From: Rhizobium sp. L1K21
Lineage (GTDB): Bacteria > Pseudomonadota > Alphaproteobacteria > Rhizobiales > Rhizobiaceae
Assembly (NCBI RefSeq): GCF_024055895.1
Contig: NZ_JAMXLE010000002.1
Span: 434,001-498,000, forward strand
Reading direction: 5' to 3'
Length of the DNA: 64,000 nucleotides
The notes under the pieces are model-generated. The model ran no database searches. It worked only from the letters and a program-made list of their open reading frames with translations, and was not told the origin of the DNA. The position numbers were made by a program, and so were the translations under genes. Below are positions 3,532 through 36,864 of this stretch, piece after piece. How positions within the stretch are numbered: position 1 is the first letter of the stretch; every line of letters begins with the position of its first letter.

Positions 3532-3972
3532 TCAGATGATTTTTTTGAGAAGGGTTTGAAGTTGTGTGCGTTCTTCGGCGCTCAGATCCGCAAAAGTCTC
3601 GTCGGTGACCTTCAGCGCGTTGGGCAAGTGCCGCGTGTAAAGTGCCTCGCCCTCTTCTGAAAGGGACAGCACGACGCGTCGCTTGTCTTCGGGGTCAGGC
3701 TTGCTCTTGATGATATTTCTCTTCTTGAGCCGCTCGACGACACCTTGGATCGTCGCAACGTCCATCCCGGTGAGCCGGCCGAGAAGATTTTGTGAACTCT
3801 CGCCAACCTGCTTCAGCTTGGAAATAAGCGCCCATTGCGTTGACGTCAGATCACCCCCAAAGCACTCGGAGAATAATGCCGTATGGCGCTGCTGTGCCAG
3901 CCGCAGAATGAAACCGATCTGGTCATCGAGCGTATAGGTTTCAGCTGTTTTTTCAGGGATATTGTCGGACAT
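3532..3972 (-). CDS. MarR family transcriptional regulator
   Basis: A 146-residue winged-helix regulator. The recognition region reads STQWALISKL, then SSQNLLGRLTGMDVATIQGVVERLKKRNII, followed by the wing PEDKRRVVLSLSEEG, all classic for MarR. I chose the ATG at 3972 (MSDN); the frame extends to a TTG at 4047 but the extra residues look non-conserved. It converges on the leucine-degradation operon and has its own short promoter region towards 4147. MarR proteins usually respond to aromatic or acyl-CoA ligands, so control of the adjacent catabolic operon is plausible but unproven. Confidence 0.85.
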   Translation of the reverse strand: MSDNIPEKTAETYTLDDQIGFILRLAQQRHTALFSECFGGDLTSTQWALISKLKQVGESSQNLLGRLTGMDVATIQGVVERLKKRNIIKSKPDPEDKRRVVLSLSEEGEALYTRHLPNALKVTDETFADLSAEERTQLQTLLKKII

Positions 3973-4147
3973 GGGCAGAATGTCTTTGCAGTTCAATGCG
4001 AGGAAGGTAATTCCTAGCTCAACAGAATTGCGTATTAGTTCATACAAACCCCCTCTCGCAAGGTTTAAATGAACATTGATCTGCCGCCCTGGAAAGGTGA
4101 CAGCATTGAACTGTCGAATAACGCCATAACGCGAACACCTCCACGCC

Positions 4148-4888
4148 TTAGATAACCTGCGGCGGGAGCTCGACCAGATCAGCGGGAATTTCGTTTGTCT
4201 TTTCGGCGGATTTGCAGATATCGGCGATCACGCAAGCCAGACAGTCCGGTTTGCGCGCCTTGCAGCAATAGCGGCCGTGCAGAATGAGCCAGTGATGCGC
4301 GTGGTAGAGATAATCATCAGGAATGAGACGCATCAACTTGTCTTCAACCTCATCGGGTGTCTTGCCTGGCGCAAGCCCAATCCGGTTGGCAATTCGAAAT
4401 ATATGGGTGTCGACTGCCATGGTGGGAATGCCGAAGGCCATGGACATGACGACATTTGCCGTCTTGCGCCCCACCCCCGGCAGGCGAACCAGCTCTTCGC
4501 GGGTTTTGGGGACTTCACCACCAAACTCATCCACCAGCATCTTTGATAAGGCAATCACGTTTTTCGCCTTGTTGCGGTAGAGCCCGATTGTCTTGATATA
4601 ATCGCGCACCCGGTCTTCGCCGAGTTCCAGCATCTTTTCCGGCGTATCGGCAATCTTGAAAAGCGCCCGCGTTGCCTTGTTGACGCCCGCATCCGTTGCC
4701 TGAGCAGACAAGGCGACGGCCACAACCAGCGTGAAAGGGTTCACGTGTTCCAGCTCGCCTTTCGGCTCAGGTCGCTGAATGGAAAAGCGGCGAAAGATTT
4801 CGCGGATCTCGGCTTCGCTATAGGCGGATCGCAATGGCGGTTTGCGTGGCCGTTTGGCCGTTTTCTTTTGGGGCTTTGCAGATGACAT
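4148..4888 (-). CDS. nth: endonuclease III (DNA glycosylase/AP lyase)
   Basis: Removes oxidised pyrimidines in base excision repair and nicks the abasic site. The 246-residue protein has the helix-hairpin-helix LPGVGRKTANVV with the catalytic lysine, the catalytic aspartate in AVDTHIFR, and the C-terminal [4Fe-4S] ligand set C-x6-C-x2-C-x5-C within CKARKPDCLACVIADIC. The basic N-terminal extension (KPQKKTAKRPRK) is common in rhizobial Nth. The ATG at 4888 is preferred; upstream ATGs at 4912 and TTG-type starts would overlap the divergent DUF2244 gene. The promoter regions of the two genes are therefore shared or overlapping. Confidence 0.96.
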   Translation of the reverse strand: MSSAKPQKKTAKRPRKPPLRSAYSEAEIREIFRRFSIQRPEPKGELEHVNPFTLVVAVALSAQATDAGVNKATRALFKIADTPEKMLELGEDRVRDYIKTIGLYRNKAKNVIALSKMLVDEFGGEVPKTREELVRLPGVGRKTANVVMSMAFGIPTMAVDTHIFRIANRIGLAPGKTPDEVEDKLMRLIPDDYLYHAHHWLILHGRYCCKARKPDCLACVIADICKSAEKTNEIPADLVELPPQVI

Positions 4889-5472: not shown

Positions 5473-6351
5473 ATGACACTTGCCCAGATCAGCACCCTTG
5501 GAACGGACATTACCCCTGCGGGCCGCGATTATGACGTGGTACGGCAGGTGATCGAAATCATGACCGAGGATTATCAGGAGCAGCCCTCGCTTGAAGCAAT
5601 TTCAGTGCGATTGGGCGTGCCGGTTACCCAGCTTCAAAAGACGTTCACACGCTGGGCGGGGCTTTCGCCTAAAGCCTTTCTTCAGGCAGTGACTTTGGAT
5701 CATGCGAAGCGGCTTTTGGGACGGGAAGGAATGCCTGTTCTCGAAACCAGCCTCGAACTCGGACTCTCAAGCCCGGGCCGTCTCCACGATCTCTTCGTAA
5801 CCCACGAGGCCATGTCGCCCGGCGAATGGAAAGCCAGGGGGGCCGGCCTCGAAATCCGCTACGGGTTCCACATTTCGCCCTTCGGGCTGGCGTTGATCAT
5901 GGTGACACCGCGCGGGTTGGCTGGTCTCGCCTTTTGCGACGAGGGTGGGCAGATGTTGTGTTTTGAAGACATGGCTGGCCGCTGGCCCAATGCGGTGTAT
6001 ATCGAAGACTTAAATGCGACCGCACCCTATGCAGCCCGCATTTTCAATCCCGACCGCTGGAGCGCGCAACAGCCCTTGCGCGTCGTCTTGATCGGGACAG
6101 ATTTTCAGGTGCGCGTGTGGGAACAGCTCTTGAAAATACCCATGGGCAAGGCCACGACCTATTCCTCGATTGCCGAAGGGATCGGAAAGCCGACAGCATC
6201 GCGTGCCGTGGGTGCTGCTGTGGGCGCGAACCCCATTTCGTTCGTCGTCCCCTGTCATCGGGCGGTGGGCAAAAGCGGCGCATTGACGGGTTACCACTGG
6301 GGTCTCACCCGCAAGCGGGCGATGCTCGGCTGGGAGGCTGGAAAAGCCTGA
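5473..6351 (+). CDS. AraC-type HTH / methylated-DNA-protein-cysteine methyltransferase fusion (Ada-like)
   Basis: A 292-residue bifunctional protein. Residues about 20-110 form an AraC-type double helix-turn-helix (LEAISVRLGVPVTQLQKTFTRWAGLSPKAFL). Residues about 120-290 form the O6-alkylguanine methyltransferase domain with the acceptor-cysteine motif FVVPCHRAVG near residue 261 and GYHWGLTRKRAML. The N-terminal zinc-bearing Ada domain that senses methylphosphotriesters is missing, so this is a short Ada. It would repair O6-methylguanine directly and may bind DNA, but methylation-triggered activation cannot work as in E. coli Ada. AAGGAGA precedes the ATG. Confidence 0.9.
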   Translation: MTLAQISTLGTDITPAGRDYDVVRQVIEIMTEDYQEQPSLEAISVRLGVPVTQLQKTFTRWAGLSPKAFLQAVTLDHAKRLLGREGMPVLETSLELGLSSPGRLHDLFVTHEAMSPGEWKARGAGLEIRYGFHISPFGLALIMVTPRGLAGLAFCDEGGQMLCFEDMAGRWPNAVYIEDLNATAPYAARIFNPDRWSAQQPLRVVLIGTDFQVRVWEQLLKIPMGKATTYSSIAEGIGKPTASRAVGAAVGANPISFVVPCHRAVGKSGALTGYHWGLTRKRAMLGWEAGKA

Positions 6352-28521: not shown

Positions 28522-28795
28522 GTTTGAACTCCCAGATCTTTATGACTTTTCCGGTCGCGGATCTACGGTTTCGCGACCAGTCACCATCCCTCACGGATGA
28601 TTTTGAGAACAAAGCCAATGTCGTGCAAACGGCGATGTTCTTAAGATGTTGCTTGAAGACAACCATTTCTTCTCAGAGAAGTAAACTGAAAAGCGCCAAA
28701 ACTGGAAAATTGTATTCCAGCGAACCGAAGCGCTCTATCTGTCTGTTTTTGCGCATTGTCGACGCCGCAGCGAACGCGCTTTGGCTGGAAATGCT

Positions 28796-29215
28796 TTAAG
28801 GATTATTGCCGTCAAGCTCCACAGCATCAATCCAGAAGCCCACACAACGCTGTGCCAACTGCGTGTAATCGGACAGCGAGCTGGGCTTTTGCAGGAAAGC
28901 AGAGGCCTTGGCCTCATAAGCCGCCTGTCTGTCATCTTCGAGGCCTGAGGAGGTGAAAATGATGACAGGAGGAAATGTACTGTTTTCCCGAGAACGCAGG
29001 TTATTGAGGAATTCAATCCCGCCCTGGCCGGGCATGTTGAGATCCACCAACATGAAGGAAACCTCACCCAGCGTGTCGAACTCTCCCAGTGCCCGCTCGG
29101 GATCGGCGTACCACACGGTTTTCAGGTCTGGTTTTGCCCTCGTAAGAGCATTTGTAATATGAAGAGCATCCATTTCGTCATCATCGACGACGACAGCGAC
29201 CTTATTGTTTTTCAT
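28796..29215 (-). CDS. single-domain response regulator (CheY-like)
   Basis: A 139-residue receiver with no output domain. It shows the acidic pocket VVDDDEMDA, the phospho-acceptor in MLVDLNMPGQGG, the Thr/Ser in IIFTSSG and the Lys in FLQKPSS. That set is complete, so it should accept phosphate. It belongs to the Rcp1/atypical group that carries QKP near the end. GGAGGAG precedes the ATG. It is the third gene of an operon after a LuxR-type regulator and another receiver; no kinase gene lies next to it, so its partner must be encoded elsewhere. Confidence 0.88.
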   Translation of the reverse strand: MKNNKVAVVVDDDEMDALHITNALTRAKPDLKTVWYADPERALGEFDTLGEVSFMLVDLNMPGQGGIEFLNNLRSRENSTFPPVIIFTSSGLEDDRQAAYEAKASAFLQKPSSLSDYTQLAQRCVGFWIDAVELDGNNP

Positions 29216-30936: not shown

Positions 30937-32673
30937 GTGCTGTGGACAACAGGCCAACGCCGCGTTTTATTTGGGGCTGGCGTCTTTGTAGTCACAGCGT
31001 CCGTTTTCATTTGTTGGGTGGATTTTATTAACGTGGTCAAATTTTCATTCTCGATTGAGCGAGCGCTTTTCCGTGCTGTGCGGCTGATTTTTGTCGTTTT
31101 CATTTCTTGGCTGGCCAGCGCGACCGTGGGTTTGGCACTTGATCTTCAGCGGCAGGGCCAGACGATTGCCGTGCCGCTGACGCTCCCCGATGGCATGGAA
31201 ATTTCGGGAAACGCGATCGACAAGACACTCGCGCTCGGCAATTTGCGCGTCGCGCTGCGCCTGCTTCAGGATCCGACATCGGATTGCCAGCCTCTGGTGG
31301 AAGCGCGGTTCAAAAGCCGGGAAAAGGATGGTTTCCGTTTCCGCCTGACGGGCGGCCCCAGCAATTGGGAGAAGGATTGCAGGCTTGCCGTGCGAAACCA
31401 CGAAAAGGGCGAGGATATCAACTCCCGCTATCTCTATCTGGAGCCCTGCGACTGCTATGCAGCGCTTCATGCCTATTACCCCACAGCGGAACGCACAAAG
31501 GCCGTCACTTGGCTTGCGCCCATTCTCACCTCGCTTGAAGACTATGCTTATAACCGGACTGCGTCTTCCTTTGAGCCCCCGGCACCGGCCAATTTTTCTG
31601 ATCCCAAGATTGAGCTTCATACTGCAGTTTTCAACACACTGGACCGCATGGACAATGGCGGGCCGCTGGAATGCAACATGACGTTCCGCGGTCAGATCGA
31701 AGACGGCGATGCCGAGCGCATTGCCAAAGCCTATCACGCACTCAGCCAGAGCACCCTTTACAGGCTCTATGCCAATATGCTGGGTCACGACCAGATTGTG
31801 CTTTGTCTGGAAAGCCCCGGAGGCTCTTTTGTCGAGGCGCTGAACTTCGTCAAAGCCAGGCTTGCGATCAGCACGATGGTGAAGGCTGATGCGTCCTGTC
31901 TGTCGGCCTGCTCGATCATGTTCATGGCCGGTCTCGGCTCTTATCCCGGCGAAGGGGTTGCGGTGCACCGCTTCCTTGAACCCGGCGGGCGGCTCGGCTT
32001 CCACACGCCGTCGCTGGAGGTGCCGGGCGGCGATTATCAGTCCGAACATGTCAACCGCGCTTATCGCGTTGCCATCCGATCCATTTACGAGATCCTGCAT
32101 CTGCTGACAGTCAGCGCCGACAAGGAAGAAGGCGATATGGGCGACGTGCAGGATGAAAACCGTTTTCCTGCCTCGCTTCTCATGAACATGCTCAAGACGC
32201 CGTCGGATGAGATGTTCTACGTGGATACAATCGGCAAGGCCGGCCGCTGGGATATCGAACTCAACACGCGGCGCCCGCTCGGACTTGATGAAAATGCGCT
32301 CTCTGAAGGCCATTTCCAATGGGCCTGCGCCAACCTCCTCGAATGGGGTAATGGCGAAGAGCGCAACTACGACCTCGACCGCGGCGAACCCGGCTACGAA
32401 AACATGATCACCGGCCCCTCAGCCCACGGCAACCCGCCCCCGCGTGAAAAAGGCGGCATCGTGCGCATCTACGAGCCGGGCTTTGACGACTACGAATGCA
32501 TCTTTCAGCGCGAGGAAGACAACATCCACGCCTCATCCTTCCACGCCAGCAACCACACAATCTGGACCGCCCAGGCCGACTACGGCTCAGTCGGCGATCA
32601 CTCGCCGACCTACTATAATCTCTATCTGACGGTTTTTCTGGACCCGGAAACACCGTTGGAGGTTTTGCGGTGA
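30937..32673 (+). CDS. large secreted or anchored protein with ClpP/crotonase-like domain (COG3904-like)
   Basis: Up to 578 residues; no assigned function. The frame opens at a GTG at 30937, but the better start may be the GTG at 31033, which would put a signal peptide or anchor (RAVRLIFVVFISWLASATVG) at the N terminus. A domain of about 200 residues with several cysteines follows, then the ClpP-like core: LESPGGSFVEALNFVK, serine motif CLSACSIMFMAG and PGGRLGFHTP. The CxSAC and GGRLGFH signatures are the same as in the 299-residue protein at 24578. A long C-terminal part (about 400-578) is unfamiliar. Its stop is followed in frame by a 59-codon coding-like stretch. Confidence 0.75.
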   Translation: MLWTTGQRRVLFGAGVFVVTASVFICWVDFINVVKFSFSIERALFRAVRLIFVVFISWLASATVGLALDLQRQGQTIAVPLTLPDGMEISGNAIDKTLALGNLRVALRLLQDPTSDCQPLVEARFKSREKDGFRFRLTGGPSNWEKDCRLAVRNHEKGEDINSRYLYLEPCDCYAALHAYYPTAERTKAVTWLAPILTSLEDYAYNRTASSFEPPAPANFSDPKIELHTAVFNTLDRMDNGGPLECNMTFRGQIEDGDAERIAKAYHALSQSTLYRLYANMLGHDQIVLCLESPGGSFVEALNFVKARLAISTMVKADASCLSACSIMFMAGLGSYPGEGVAVHRFLEPGGRLGFHTPSLEVPGGDYQSEHVNRAYRVAIRSIYEILHLLTVSADKEEGDMGDVQDENRFPASLLMNMLKTPSDEMFYVDTIGKAGRWDIELNTRRPLGLDENALSEGHFQWACANLLEWGNGEERNYDLDRGEPGYENMITGPSAHGNPPPREKGGIVRIYEPGFDDYECIFQREEDNIHASSFHASNHTIWTAQADYGSVGDHSPTYYNLYLTVFLDPETPLEVLR

Positions 32674-32853
32674 GGATTACCCGCCGAACTGAAGCTCGAT
32701 CCCCGTGAGGCCCGCGAGCGCCTACGTGATGCCGTGCGCGATCAGAAGAAGTATCCCGAACTGGCGAAGGCGCATAAGCCCCGCTCGCCTTGGCAATGGG
32801 TCAAAGGATCAGCAGGTGAGAAGGAAGCAAAGGGGTTGTTTTCAGGGAAGTGA
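32674..32853 (+). pseudogene. 59-codon coding remnant in frame after the ClpP-fold gene
   Basis: Directly after the TGA at 32671, the same frame stays open for 59 codons to a TGA at 32851, with GC-rich host-like codons and no start codon. It reads as the charged C terminus of some protein, with pieces DPREARERLRDAVRDQKKYP and SPWQWVKGS. I cannot identify the family. It is either a gene tail left by a deletion or insertion at the edge of the AT-rich island, or a readthrough extension of the preceding gene. Confidence 0.45.
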
Positions 32854-33022
32854 TAGATGAACAGCGCCCAATAATTAGAACATCTAAAGCTCTCACAAAG
32901 CTGGAAATTGCTTCCGGCTTTTTTCTTGGTTCGCACTCGCAGAGCGCAAATATATAAACTTGTGATTTTCTTTTGTCGGCATCACAACTACTTTATCCTC
33001 AATTGCTTGAAGGAGGAGGTCG
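32854..33022. promoter_or_regulatory. upstream region of the Gabija-like operon
   Basis: About 170 AT-rich bases marking the change from host-like to AT-rich sequence. It should hold the promoter of the defence operon. AAGGAGGAGG, a near-perfect ribosome-binding site, ends 4 bases before the ATG at 33023. Confidence 0.45.
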
Positions 33023-34915
33023 ATGGTGGACGACGAAAAGAAGAAAGAACCTCAGAAGCCTTTGACCGTTCGACGTCTAATGATTGAGAACTTCAGGGGT
33101 GTTGCAAGGGGACAAGTGGATTTTTCAGGGCACACGCTTCTGGTTGGTGGAAACAACGTAGGCAAGTCAACCATATGCGACGCGCTTGAGTTAGTGCTGG
33201 GGCCTGAGAGAGCCTTTCGACGCCCAATAGTAAATGAGCATGATTTTCATTCGGGACAATATTTGGATGAAAATGGAGTTCCCATCTATATCAAGATTGA
33301 TGTCGTATTGCTGCATCTACCGGAAGAGATGGAGAAGCGACTGTTTTCCAAAACACGTCCATGGAGTGATAAGAAAGGAGGGTTCGTCGATGTTGAGGGA
33401 GCCAAGCCCGAAGATGCTGACGCAGAAGACGTCTGTCGCGCGCTCCCTCTAAGCTTCATCGGCTACTATAACCGGCAAGAAGATGACTTCGCCGGTGGAA
33501 CATACTTTTCGCATCCAATCCAAGAAATTGGGGAAGATGATGAGCAGTTTGGCAAACCCTTCGCCGGGTTGAGTTACTTTCCCCGTGAATGGAAAATTCA
33601 GTGCGGCTTCATATATCTGCGTACATTGAGGACCGGTCGACGAGCTCTTAGTCTCGAACGCGGATCCTTACTCGACACCATACTTAGACTGGGCGACTCT
33701 GGAAAAGAGTCGATGTGGGAAAGCACTGTCAAACAAATACGCGCTCTGAAACCGGCAATTGGCGACATTCCACAATTGGAGGAAATCCAAAAGCAAATTC
33801 GAAATCGCATGTCGCGCTTTGTTGGCCTCTCAAGTGATGCAGACGCCACAGGTTTTTTTGCTTCAGACTTAACACGCGAACACCTCCGCGAAGTCGTGCA
33901 GCTTTTCCTTAAATCGAAGGAAAGCAACCACAGCGTTCCATATAGCAGGCTGGGTACAGGCGCAGTAAATGCGCTCGTTTTTGCCCTACTTACACACATC
34001 GCCGATTTACGTGGAAATCGTGCAGTTATTTTTGCAATGGAAGAGCCCGAAATTGCGCTACCCCCACACGCGCAGCGAAGAATTACAAAATATCTACTCA
34101 GCAATATGGGCCAGGCGATCATCACCTCACACTCACCATACGTGATAGAGGAATTTGAGCTAACGAATGTGAATGCAGTTTCTAGACAAAATGCCGTGCT
34201 TTCTTCAGACAGCATCCCCACCGATGCAATTAAATATCGGACGCTCCGAAGCAACAGAAGGCAGCTCGCAGAAGCTGTGCTTGCTCGGGGAATAATAGTC
34301 GCCGAGGGGGACACCGAGGCAAAAATGTTGCTTGCCGCAACCTATGCATTCGAGAAGCTGGACCCCAGCAATGAATATGTTCCCTTAGATATAGTTGGCG
34401 TTAGTATTTTCGACGCAGGCAGCCAGTCCAATATTCCAAGATGGGGTCCTTTCTTTAACGCGTTGAACAAAGTTACATTTGCGTTTCATGACCAGCCCAA
34501 TGCCGCATGGACTGAAGATCAAAGTGCGAATCTTGCGACCTATCAATACAATTTTGAGACCAATTACAAAGGCACAGAATATCTATTGATAGAGGAAGTT
34601 CCTGTCTCGGTTCTCAGACGGTTTCTGACTCGCGTCTCTGAGCACCCCGATTATCCGACAGAGAAAGGGTACTTGAATAACGCACCTAATGACGAGGAGG
34701 TCAAAAAGCTGGCCAAGGAAGTCTTGAAAGCCAAAAAGGGGTCTGGTTTCGCGGCAATGGTGATTGAGGAATGCCAAGCGCTTGAGGAACTACCTAAGTC
34801 AGTTAAGGAGTTTCTAACCAGGGTTGCCAAAGATATGGCGCTACCAAAACTCGAGGGAGAGGGGACCGATGAGGCAGGAAAGGAAGGTGATCAACTGAAC
34901 GGATTGCTTTGGTAG
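33023..34915 (+). CDS. OLD-family ATP-dependent nuclease, GajA-like
   Basis: A 630-residue predicted nuclease. The N-terminal ABC-type ATPase domain shows MIENFRGVARGQVDF, Walker A VGGNNVGKST (about 41-50), Walker B VIFAMEEPEIALPP (about 334) and the H-loop IITSHSPYVIEE (about 366). The C-terminal TOPRIM domain begins with VAEGDTEAKML (about 426), has FHDQP near 487 where many TOPRIMs have DxD, and KKGSGFAAMVIEE near 570 as the conserved lysine region. In Gabija this protein cuts phage DNA when nucleotides are depleted. It is followed 27 bp later by a UvrD-like helicase, the expected partner. Codon use is AT-rich compared with the neighbours, a sign of transfer. Confidence 0.85.
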   Translation: MVDDEKKKEPQKPLTVRRLMIENFRGVARGQVDFSGHTLLVGGNNVGKSTICDALELVLGPERAFRRPIVNEHDFHSGQYLDENGVPIYIKIDVVLLHLPEEMEKRLFSKTRPWSDKKGGFVDVEGAKPEDADAEDVCRALPLSFIGYYNRQEDDFAGGTYFSHPIQEIGEDDEQFGKPFAGLSYFPREWKIQCGFIYLRTLRTGRRALSLERGSLLDTILRLGDSGKESMWESTVKQIRALKPAIGDIPQLEEIQKQIRNRMSRFVGLSSDADATGFFASDLTREHLREVVQLFLKSKESNHSVPYSRLGTGAVNALVFALLTHIADLRGNRAVIFAMEEPEIALPPHAQRRITKYLLSNMGQAIITSHSPYVIEEFELTNVNAVSRQNAVLSSDSIPTDAIKYRTLRSNRRQLAEAVLARGIIVAEGDTEAKMLLAATYAFEKLDPSNEYVPLDIVGVSIFDAGSQSNIPRWGPFFNALNKVTFAFHDQPNAAWTEDQSANLATYQYNFETNYKGTEYLLIEEVPVSVLRRFLTRVSEHPDYPTEKGYLNNAPNDEEVKKLAKEVLKAKKGSGFAAMVIEECQALEELPKSVKEFLTRVAKDMALPKLEGEGTDEAGKEGDQLNGLLW

Positions 34916-34941
34916 CGAACATCCATGATAGAGGCCCGAAA

Positions 34942-36672
34942 ATGGCATTCACAATTTGCGAAAAGCGCAAATCAATAATCAATGAGCCGAACCATGCGCT
35001 CGTAATCGGAGGGCCAGGCTCCGGTAAGACCACAGTTGCGCTGTTGAAAAGCAAAGAGCTCATACCGAAGCTAACTCCAGGGCAAAGCATCCTTTTCCTC
35101 AGCTTTTCCCGTGCTGCCGTTCAACAGATATTAAAGCGATGCCGTGAAATTCTCACAAAGGACGAGATGGCGCGAATTGACGTTCGAACATATCATTCGT
35201 TCTGTTGGGATATTTTGCATTCCCACGGAACCTTGTTGGGTGGAACCCCTCTGAGAATGATGGCTCCATCTGCAGAAAGCGCTCGCCGGACGCAATTCGA
35301 GGGAGATTGGGTAACAGAAAGTAAGCGTCTTCAAGAAGAAGAAGGGGTTATATGTTTCGATCTTTTCGCGGCGACCACAGCAGACCTTCTTGAGGGTAGC
35401 GCTCACATCCGTGGCTGGATGGGAAAGCTCTTTCCATTGATAATTCTTGACGAATTTCAGGATTCTGATGATGAACAATGGCGCTTTGTTCGACAATTAA
35501 GTCGCGCAGCGCAGACTTTATTTTTGGCAGATACAGAGCAGCGCATCTTTGAAGGCGATTTTCGACCCGGCGTAAGACCAGAGAGGTTGGACATTTTAAA
35601 AGAAGAAATTGCATTGCTCGAAGTAGACCTTCGTAATGATAATTATCGCAGCGCAGATAGCGAAATCTTAGCATACGCCAATTGCATTTTGAGTGGGAAT
35701 GGCCCGCTTCCCAAAACGAACGATGTTCATTGCATAAAATATAAGTACCCCAATCAGTTCGCGTCTTCTGTGCATCTTGCAGTGGCGATAACGCTCAGCG
35801 AATTGCTAAAACGTGGTTTCATGGATCCAACCGTCGCTGTGCTTACACGAAGCAATGATCTCGTTGCAGAAATTTCAGATGTACTAGAAGCCACTCATAC
35901 GTATAAAAATAAACTGCTGAAACCAATTCCCCATGACGTAGTTTGGGACCAGGAATTGTCTGCGACAGCAGGCGTAGCGATAGCCGCTGCATTAGAGTTT
36001 GCTTCGAATGGGGACCATGCCTCAAGAGAAGCAGTTTTTACCAAAATCGAAGACTATTTTCTGGTCAAAAAGGACTTCAGCGAAAGATACGGTGGACGTG
36101 GCGCTGCCTCCGCCGGTCAGAAAGCCACACGGTTTAGCAATGCAAAAGCAAATGTTGCGTTGGGAAAAGCTTTGGTAAAAGGCTCCCCTAAAACCTTAGA
36201 AGAAACTTTGATTTCAATTGGCCCCATGACTGGAGACCCTGTGATCGACTGGAAAGCCGTAAGGGCGGCTTTTCTTTGCCATGCCGATCTAAAACAGATT
36301 TTCCAAGATGCTAAAATGGTTCGCCTGTTTCGCGCCACCGATACCCTTGCTGGGACGCTTTCGGGTCGTTGGATTGAGCGAGGTAATTATGAAGGCGCCG
36401 CGAGGATTGTTCGCAATGTACTTGATCAAGAAAAATTAATCGGACTGGAGCGTGATCCGAAGGGAGTGTCATTGATGACCCTACACAAATCGAAGGGGAA
36501 AGAGTTTAACGGCGTCGTCTTGGTGGAAGGCCGCTATTCAAGCCCTTTTTTCCTTAAGCGCGAAAAGCCCGACTTTGCACCCTCTCGAAGACTTTTGCGC
36601 GTAGGACTCACAAGGGCCAGAAACCTAGCGTTGATGGTTCGGCCAGAAGCAGCTCCAGCTTTGGTTGATTAA
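34942..36672 (+). CDS. UvrD/Rep-like superfamily 1 helicase, GajB-like
   Basis: A 576-residue SF1A helicase-like protein. Motifs: Walker A GGPGSGKTTVALL (about 22-34), motif Ia FLSFSRAAVQQ, motif II LIILDEFQDSDDEQW (about 168), motif III LFLADTEQRIF, motif IV-V LMTLHKSKGKEFNGVVLV and motif VI LLRVGLTRARNLALMV near the end. The 1B/2B inserts of true UvrD are reduced. Together with the OLD nuclease upstream it matches the two-gene Gabija layout, where GajB senses DNA ends or single strands and activates GajA. The ATG at 34942 has GAGG upstream; an earlier TTG overlaps the nuclease stop. The gene ends about 115 bp before the 3' end of tRNA-Phe. Confidence 0.85.
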   Translation: MAFTICEKRKSIINEPNHALVIGGPGSGKTTVALLKSKELIPKLTPGQSILFLSFSRAAVQQILKRCREILTKDEMARIDVRTYHSFCWDILHSHGTLLGGTPLRMMAPSAESARRTQFEGDWVTESKRLQEEEGVICFDLFAATTADLLEGSAHIRGWMGKLFPLIILDEFQDSDDEQWRFVRQLSRAAQTLFLADTEQRIFEGDFRPGVRPERLDILKEEIALLEVDLRNDNYRSADSEILAYANCILSGNGPLPKTNDVHCIKYKYPNQFASSVHLAVAITLSELLKRGFMDPTVAVLTRSNDLVAEISDVLEATHTYKNKLLKPIPHDVVWDQELSATAGVAIAAALEFASNGDHASREAVFTKIEDYFLVKKDFSERYGGRGAASAGQKATRFSNAKANVALGKALVKGSPKTLEETLISIGPMTGDPVIDWKAVRAAFLCHADLKQIFQDAKMVRLFRATDTLAGTLSGRWIERGNYEGAARIVRNVLDQEKLIGLERDPKGVSLMTLHKSKGKEFNGVVLVEGRYSSPFFLKREKPDFAPSRRLLRVGLTRARNLALMVRPEAAPALVD

Positions 36673-36788
36673 GCCATTTTGAGAGTCCCTTCAAACGCAC
36701 CTGACACCCAGAATGGCACCCAAGCGCATTTGACGCTGGAACGCCCAACAGAGCAATCCCTGTAAAGATTTGATATTAAAGAGAAAAA

Positions 36789-36864
36789 TGGTGCCCGGAG
36801 GCGGATTCGAACCACCGACACGCGGATTTTCAATCCGCTGCTCTACCAACTGAGCTATCCGGGC
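36789..36864 (-). tRNA. tRNA-Phe (GAA)
   Basis: Read on the minus strand, the 76 bases begin GCCCGGATAGCTCAGTTGG, carry anticodon loop TTGAAAA (anticodon GAA), the T-loop GGTTCGAATCC, and end TCCGGGCACCA with an encoded CCA. Acceptor arms GCCCGGA/TCCGGGC pair perfectly. Its 3' end faces the AT-rich defence genes, the orientation seen when islands integrate at a tRNA 3' end. A T-run after the CCA may act as terminator. Confidence 0.97.

What the first reader, a model, noticed from the sequence alone, without database searches (positions are those of the whole stretch)
33023..36672. Two-gene Gabija-like defence system beside tRNA-Phe
An OLD-family ATPase/TOPRIM protein (Walker A VGGNNVGKST, VAEGDTE) is followed by a UvrD-like SF1 helicase (GGPGSGKTT, LDEFQDSD), the GajA-GajB layout. 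Codon use is clearly more AT-rich than on both sides, and the pair lies against the 3' end of tRNA-Phe, a classic integration site. Both proteins are longer (630 and 576 residues) than the well-known Bacillus versions, so this may be a distinct subtype.
Basis: partly seen in the sequence, partly recalled or inferred. Interest (0 to 1): 0.72.

Follow-up and report, generated by a model that had tools for sequence, protein, structure and literature searches.

The report
Gabija defence pair at tRNA-Phe slot
This is a complete two-gene Gabija anti-phage system, apparently acquired by the bacterium next to a tRNA gene; its nuclease belongs to a widespread branch in which one residue described as invariant in the cutting site is usually missing.

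Summary
gajA (33023-34915, 630 aa) and gajB (34942-36672, 576 aa) are intact, co-directional and 26 nt apart; they are AT-rich (GC3 0.48 and 0.44; mean 0.65 for 33 window ORFs) and lie against the 3' end of tRNA-Phe. Both match Gabija profiles end to end (PADLOC PDLC00086, 724 bits; PDLC00104, 609 bits). A GajB match follows GajA in 77 of 80 relatives; the other 3 contigs stop first. The modelled GajA's best PDB match is Bacillus GajA. So it is Gabija. Length is a poor argument for a subtype. A better one emerged: the second Asp of the TOPRIM DxD motif is missing (D490-Q-P492), as in 77 of 84 family members examined; the 7 exceptions are one nested beta-proteobacterial clade, and 34 of 34 GajA/OLD proteins fetched with two other PADLOC profiles keep an acid there. 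The other metal ligands and the catalytic Lys are kept, so I expect an active nuclease with a modified metal-A site. tRNA-Phe marks a variable slot: synteny with 5 of 5 congeners starts at its 3' end, and another genus carries this Gabija family beside maf and tRNA-Phe, inverted. No att repeat was found in the window, and no integrase among the four proteins checked.

The parts
33023..34915 (+). gajA: OLD-family ABC ATPase + TOPRIM nuclease, 630 aa
   Evidence: PDLC00086, 724 bits; AAA_15; OLD-like_TOPRIM 23.8 bits against a cut-off of 23.2; model; best fold match 8u7i_A GajA
34942..36672 (+). gajB: UvrD/Rep-like SF1 helicase, 576 aa
   Evidence: PDLC00104, 609 bits; UvrD-helicase, UvrD_C; helicase motifs present
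34304..34318 (+). TOPRIM EGDTE: E428 and E432 (equivalents of BpOLD E400/E404)
   Evidence: E428 in 84 of 84; E432 is E in 75 and D in 9 of 84; codons checked
34490..34498 (+). variant DxD motif, D490-Q491-P492, directly after predicted strand 484-489; second Asp missing
34577..34579 (+). E519 (equivalent of BpOLD E508, metal B)
   Evidence: 83 of 84, one gap; codon checked
34736..34738 (+). K572 (equivalent of BpOLD K562, catalytic Lys)
   Evidence: 82 of 84, one Thr, one gap; codon checked
36789..36864 (-). tRNA-Phe (GAA); its 3' end faces gajB and marks the edge of synteny with congeners
32897..32921 (+). terminator-like hairpin (10 pairs, T-rich tail) upstream of gajA, possibly insulating the operon
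   Evidence: hits in the region are no more than in shuffles (7 against a mean of 5.7), so weak; no sigma-70-like promoter was found before gajA in the same call
33010..33016 (+). AAGGAGG ribosome-binding-like sequence before gajA
   Evidence: read directly

Best explanation
The pair is a complete Gabija (class 2 OLD) anti-phage system of the PADLOC PDLC00086/PDLC00104 type, acquired horizontally into a variable slot at the 3' end of tRNA-Phe. By homology, GajA and GajB form a complex. GajB, an SF1 helicase with intact motifs, engages unprotected linear or unwound phage DNA. The ATPase domain of GajA regulates its TOPRIM nuclease, which then cuts the DNA and stops phage genome circularisation or replication. 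In this family the nuclease keeps E428, E432, D490, E519 and K572 but has lost the second Asp of DxD. I therefore infer an active enzyme in which water or a nearby side chain completes the metal-A shell, perhaps nicking more than it degrades. Shown here: gene content, profile and fold match, co-occurrence, residue conservation, composition, synteny break. Inferred: complex formation, triggering, cleavage, protection.
For: Profiles: and PDLC00086 matches 63 of 63 aligned sequences (window and 62 relatives) at E <= 1e-100. Co-occurrence: a GajB match next to GajA in 77 of 80 loci, and in 6 of 6 same-family genomes including the window's own. Fold. Active site. Helicase motifs. Acquisition: GC3, absent from the 5 other genomes held of the genus, synteny break. 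Mechanism by homology: PMC10781630, PMC8136825, PMC6755086, PMC10568477 (passages), PMC12407980 (abstract and passages).
Against: [quoted passage not shown] The GajB model ranks UvrD/Rep/PcrA structures above Bacillus GajB, which comes 40th, so transfer of the Bacillus GajAB assembly is uncertain. The TOPRIM Pfam match is only just above its cut-off. There is no expression or phage data. Residues of about 200-300 of GajA are modelled with low confidence.
Confidence: 0.88

Rival explanations
1. The TOPRIM domain is catalytically dead in this family, and GajA acts through its ATPase and with GajB as a DNA-binding or helicase-regulating block rather than by cutting.
For: Second DxD Asp missing in 77 of 84. 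A listed abstract reports an E. coli OLD protein (ybjD) whose TOPRIM domain is dispensable for its anti-phage phenotype (PMC13261556, abstract start in the search listing; not read further).
Against: E428 and D490 are invariant (84 of 84), E432 is E or D in 84 of 84, E519 is kept in 83 and K572 in 82 of 84; that is hard to explain without catalysis. In BpOLD the single D457A change had no discernible effect on cleavage (PMC6755086, passage).
Confidence: 0.12
2. It is a non-Gabija OLD/helicase pair (another class 2-like defence system) that only resembles Gabija.
For: Sequence similarity to the solved Bacillus GajA is weak (phmmer E about 1e-9), and the GajB model is nearer UvrD/Rep than Bacillus GajB.
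Against: Full-length hits to GajA and GajB profiles, and none better to another system among the 25 models shown for each protein; GajA tops the fold search. Gabija as catalogued is already this diverse: of the 25 models shown for GajA (of 104 that match), 21 are labelled GajA, 1 Old, 2 AriA and 1 HEC-01A.
Confidence: 0.06
3. The position beside tRNA-Phe is a coincidence of rearrangement, not insertion into a tRNA slot.
For: No att repeat in the window and no integrase among four proteins checked. Only 4 of 80 relatives have a tRNA within 1.5 kb. The congeners' left flank lies on another contig here, so the left side is rearranged.
Against: Synteny with 5 of 5 congeners begins within 18 nt of the tRNA 3' end. 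Four congeners share a long left flank and the fifth a 263-bp piece of it, with 1.1-2.3 kb of mostly different content between flank and tRNA. L008, from another genus, has maf, tRNA-Phe, then the same Gabija family in opposite orientation.
Confidence: 0.3

Closest known systems
Gabija of Bacillus cereus VD045 (GajA 578 aa, GajB about 493-499 aa; 8sm3, 8jq9, 8u7i)
   Same: Two-gene order, ABC ATPase + TOPRIM GajA, UvrD-like GajB; GajA fold is the top Foldseek match
   Different: TOPRIM DxD is intact there (D432/D434, PMC10781630 passage); here D490/P492. Sequence match is weak, and this GajB is closer in fold to UvrD/Rep
PADLOC GajA PDLC00086 / GajB PDLC00104
   Same: Full-length members; 63 of 63 aligned GajA sequences match PDLC00086
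   Different: None in membership. The descriptions returned with the profiles say nothing of the active site
BpOLD / XccOLD (class 2 OLD nucleases, PMC6755086, passages)
   Same: E400, E404, D455, E508, K562 have equivalents here (E428, E432, D490, E519, K572), by motif order and alignment of other families, not by a direct alignment to BpOLD
   Different: D457 has no acidic equivalent in 77 of 84; T506 corresponds to G517 by counting; D455-E508 spacing is 53 against 29 here
TsOLD (class 1 OLD, 6p74)
   Same: Aligned by profile; HDED of TsOLD aligns with the D490 motif
   Different: Single gene (PMC10568477 passage), keeps DxD

Membership tests
Gabija | GajA: OLD-type ABC ATPase fused to TOPRIM | tested here: met
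   PDLC00086 724 bits, residues 15-619; Pfam AAA_15 and (barely) OLD-like_TOPRIM above cut-off; fold
Gabija | GajB: UvrD-like helicase encoded directly next to gajA | tested here: met
   PDLC00104 609 bits; 26 nt gap; GajB match beside GajA in 77 of 80 relatives, the other 3 cut by contig ends
Gabija | GajA-GajB complex | not testable with these tools
   No co-fold or assay available
Gabija | Anti-phage activity requiring both genes | not testable with these tools
   Needs phage assay
Canonical class 2 OLD / TOPRIM active site | Invariant Glu plus second Glu (BpOLD E400/E404) | tested here: met
   E428 84 of 84; E432 E in 75, D in 9; the window has E at both
Canonical class 2 OLD / TOPRIM active site | DxD motif after the third strand | tested here: not met
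   D490-Q-P492; second acid absent in 77 of 84 family members, present in 34 of 34 from two other profiles' hits. This is a motif of the fold, not a criterion by which Gabija is defined
Canonical class 2 OLD / TOPRIM active site | Metal-B Glu (E508) and catalytic Lys (K562) | tested here: met
   E519 83 of 84, K572 82 of 84
SF1 UvrD-like helicase | Walker A, DExQD, motifs III, IV, V, VI | tested here: met
   (72-77 rows per motif without gaps, window included; motif names recalled)
tRNA-integrated island | Integrase and duplicated tRNA 3' end | tested here: not met
   four proteins; window only; one search listed only 20 of 32 repeat families
tRNA-integrated island | Synteny break at tRNA 3' end with variable cargo | tested here: met

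The most novel reading that the evidence does not exclude
A phylum-spanning Gabija branch has rebuilt its TOPRIM centre: it lost the second DxD aspartate at its base, works with an altered or single-metal site (a nickase-type GajA), and one beta-proteobacterial lineage later regained the acid. The branch would then attack phage DNA by a different cleavage mode from the Bacillus enzyme.
Probability: 0.3. Interest if true: 0.6.

Novelty: new variant of a known kind. Interest (0 to 1): 0.4.

Why it matters
Gabija is among the most common bacterial immune systems (over 15% of genomes, PMC10781630 abstract), but the entries named GajA that my PDB searches returned look like one Bacillus protein under different tags (four of five seen residue by residue). 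A large family that dispenses with a residue described as absolutely conserved would be a natural experiment on how the TOPRIM nuclease uses its metals, and on whether Gabija needs processive degradation or only nicking. The family contains a nested clade that has the acid, which offers natural comparison pairs. The tRNA-Phe slot also gives a defined place to look for defence cargo in this genus.

Tried and rejected
Length as the mark of a subtype: rejected, lengths overlap. tRNA association as a general habit of this Gabija: rejected, 4 of 80 loci have a tRNA within 1.5 kb (75 of 80 hold at least 1 kb upstream and 64 at least 1 kb downstream); no formal test against chance. att repeat: a 21-mer (up to 3 mismatches) and a 15-mer (1 mismatch) from the tRNA 3' end match only the tRNA itself in the window. 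Clean empty site: not obtained, because the congeners' left flank lies on contig C7 here while tRNA-Phe is on C8. Compensating acid for P492: every position that is acidic in at least 85% of the 77 members without DxD is acidic in 7 of 7 DxD members too; the best family-specific candidate, position 468, is acidic in 66 of the 77 but Gln in the window and in 8 other members, so it is rejected for this protein. BpOLD as a member of this family: its structure was not among the hits, and its motif spacing differs. Phage-borne copies: no match in 50,697 phage records; plasmids: 90 records match, 16 over at least 80% of the query, all under 60% identity. Rfam scan of 28-37 kb: only the tRNA. Folding the dispersed repeat near 28.7 kb: no unusual stability. 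Literature: searches (29 of 29 listed; 9 of 9; 5 of 5; 12 of 84 listed) showed no paper on loss of the DxD acid in a GajA family, judged from titles, abstract starts and the passages read; supplements were not read.
Full report
Observation. gajA (33023-34915) and gajB (34942-36672) are intact, on the plus strand and 26 nt apart. An AAGGAGG sequence (33010-33016) precedes gajA. tRNA-Phe lies at 36789-36864 on the minus strand with its 3' end towards gajB. GC3 of gajA and gajB is 0.482 and 0.442; 33 ORFs of the window that I took as genes average 0.647 (sd 0.037, minimum 0.539).

What it is. PADLOC: GajA PDLC00086 at 724 bits over residues 15-619, the next model at 119 bits; GajB PDLC00104 at 609 bits over residues 3-573, the next, also GajB, at 418. 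Pfam: AAA_15 and the OLD-like TOPRIM domain in GajA (the latter only just above its cut-off), UvrD-helicase and UvrD_C in GajB. No NCBIfam model reaches its cut-off for the pair. In genome contigs 287 stretches encode a relative and the best 80 were kept. A GajB match, in a few loci partial or split, follows GajA in 77 of these 80; in L061, L063 and L064 the contig ends just after or inside gajA. In the window's own bacterial family 6 of 297 genomes, own included, carry a relative at E <= 1e-30, and 6 of 6 have a GajB match beside it; none of the 5 other genomes held of the genus does. In a phylum sample PDLC00086 is in 5 of 249 genomes at E <= 1e-60, own included, and in 0 of 14 control genomes.

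Structure. An AlphaFold2 model of GajA (63-sequence alignment, mean pLDDT 83.2, low in about residues 200-300 and the C-terminal tail) has Bacillus GajA in complex with GajB and Gad1 (8u7i_A, E 5e-22, TM 0.50) as best PDB match, followed by TsOLD and other GajA entries. The GajB model (35 sequences, pLDDT 88.7) matches UvrD, Rep and PcrA best; Bacillus GajB first appears at rank 40. The SF1 motifs are largely kept across 72-77 rows.

The active site. [quoted passage not shown] metal B on E508, with E404 and T506; and a catalytic K562. It calls the metal ligands absolutely conserved in class 2, yet reports that single changes, D457A among them, had no discernible effect on cleavage, and that disturbing one site left nicking while abolishing processive degradation (PMC6755086, passages read). 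In Bacillus GajA the site is E379, G409, D432 and D434 (PMC10781630, passages), and E379A, D511A and K541A abolish cleavage (PMC8136825, passages). In the window's protein D490 sits directly after the predicted strand 484-489 and aligns with the first Asp of HDED in TsOLD, but the residue two on is Pro. Across 84 GajA of the family, the window's included, 77 lack an acid there (P 44, Q 17, K 7, L 3, M 3, I 2, R 1) and 7 have Asp; meanwhile K48, E341, E428, G459 and D490 are 84 of 84, E432 is E in 75 and D in 9, E519 is 83 and K572 is 82. Of 37 proteins taken from hits of two other PADLOC GajA profiles, 34 have D (29) or E (5) at the position; the remaining 3 (L129-L131) are themselves PDLC00086 members. 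Of the 37, 31 show a helicase match, some weak, in the short flank held; the 3 family members are among those, which leaves 28 of 34. These outside proteins are a mixed OLD set, not all proven GajA, and represent two profiles of the many in PADLOC.

Phylogeny. In a 119-row tree (quick method, SH-aLRT) the family with L129-L131 forms one group (support 99), the 34 outside proteins are the other side of that branch, and the 7 DxD members form one clade (support 100) nested deep inside, among members without the acid. The simplest reading is one loss near the base of the family and one regain, which coincides with a short insertion in the alignment. The program warns that long branches meet at the join between PDLC04168 proteins and this family, so the deep position is unsure. 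Near-identical GajA in different genera (L007/L008; L018/L083) point to recent transfer.

Position. DNA synteny between the window and 5 of 5 congeners begins at 36771-36785 and runs rightwards through tRNA-Phe, maf and hisD (the two genes by Pfam Maf and Histidinol_dh); nothing to the left matches in the 16-20 kb held of each. Four of the congeners share a long left flank and the fifth (L120) a 263-bp piece of it; between it and the tRNA lie 1.1-2.3 kb of content that matches in L121 and L122 and not otherwise: in L122 a DUF4365-TPR protein, in L120 an unrecognised 294-aa ORF. In the window's genome the shared left flank is on another contig, so the site is rearranged and no clean empty site can be drawn. 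L008 (Aliiroseovarius) has a Maf match at 3749-4327, tRNA-Phe at 5655-5729 and then gajAB of this family, in the opposite orientation relative to the tRNA; its maf-tRNA gap is 1.3 kb against 0.4 kb here. The slot reading is therefore supported, but neither an integrase (four proteins checked) nor an att repeat in the window was found.

How it works. I commit to the Gabija mode: a GajAB complex, with GajB helicase and GajA nuclease acting on unprotected phage DNA. Two triggers are in the literature: nucleotide depletion (reviewed in PMC10568477, passages) and linear DNA ends from which RecBCD is excluded, preventing circularisation (PMC12407980, abstract and passages). I cannot choose between them from sequence. 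The missing Asp makes a changed metal-A site likely, but the invariance of the remaining ligands argues against a dead enzyme.

Verdict. An ordinary Gabija by gene content; a variant by active site. The active-site feature belongs to most of the family, not to this window alone. Literature searches showed no description of it; supplements were not read.

Noticed in passing
window 28723-28800: A stretch of about 78 nt that recurs in the window's own genome at 80-90% identity in eight further listed places (seven on contig C7, one on C4) and once in a congener; a dispersed repeat without unusual RNA stability.
   Followed up: partly
window 30937-32673 +: 578-aa ORF with only weak matches: NCBIfam NF045542 (ClpP-related head maturation protease, E 0.004, far below cut-off) and phrog_30575 of unknown function (E 2e-7); sits just upstream of gajA.
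   Followed up: partly
window 32674-32853 +: Open stretch of 59 codons without a clear start directly after that ORF; looks like the tail of a lost gene; no PHROG match.
   Followed up: partly
L122 3839-5647 -: DUF4365-TPR protein in the same tRNA-Phe slot of a congener, with weak matches to defence models (PDLC02398 E 4e-5): candidate alternative defence cargo.
   Followed up: partly
L120 4012-4896 -: 294-aa ORF in the slot of another congener with no Pfam or PADLOC match.
   Followed up: no
L012/L013, L017/L022: Identical or near-identical GajA in MAGs assigned to different phyla: recent transfer or binning error.
   Followed up: no
L015, L030, L060: Relatives in which gajA or gajB looks broken or truncated although the contig continues, suggesting decay of the system.
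   Followed up: no
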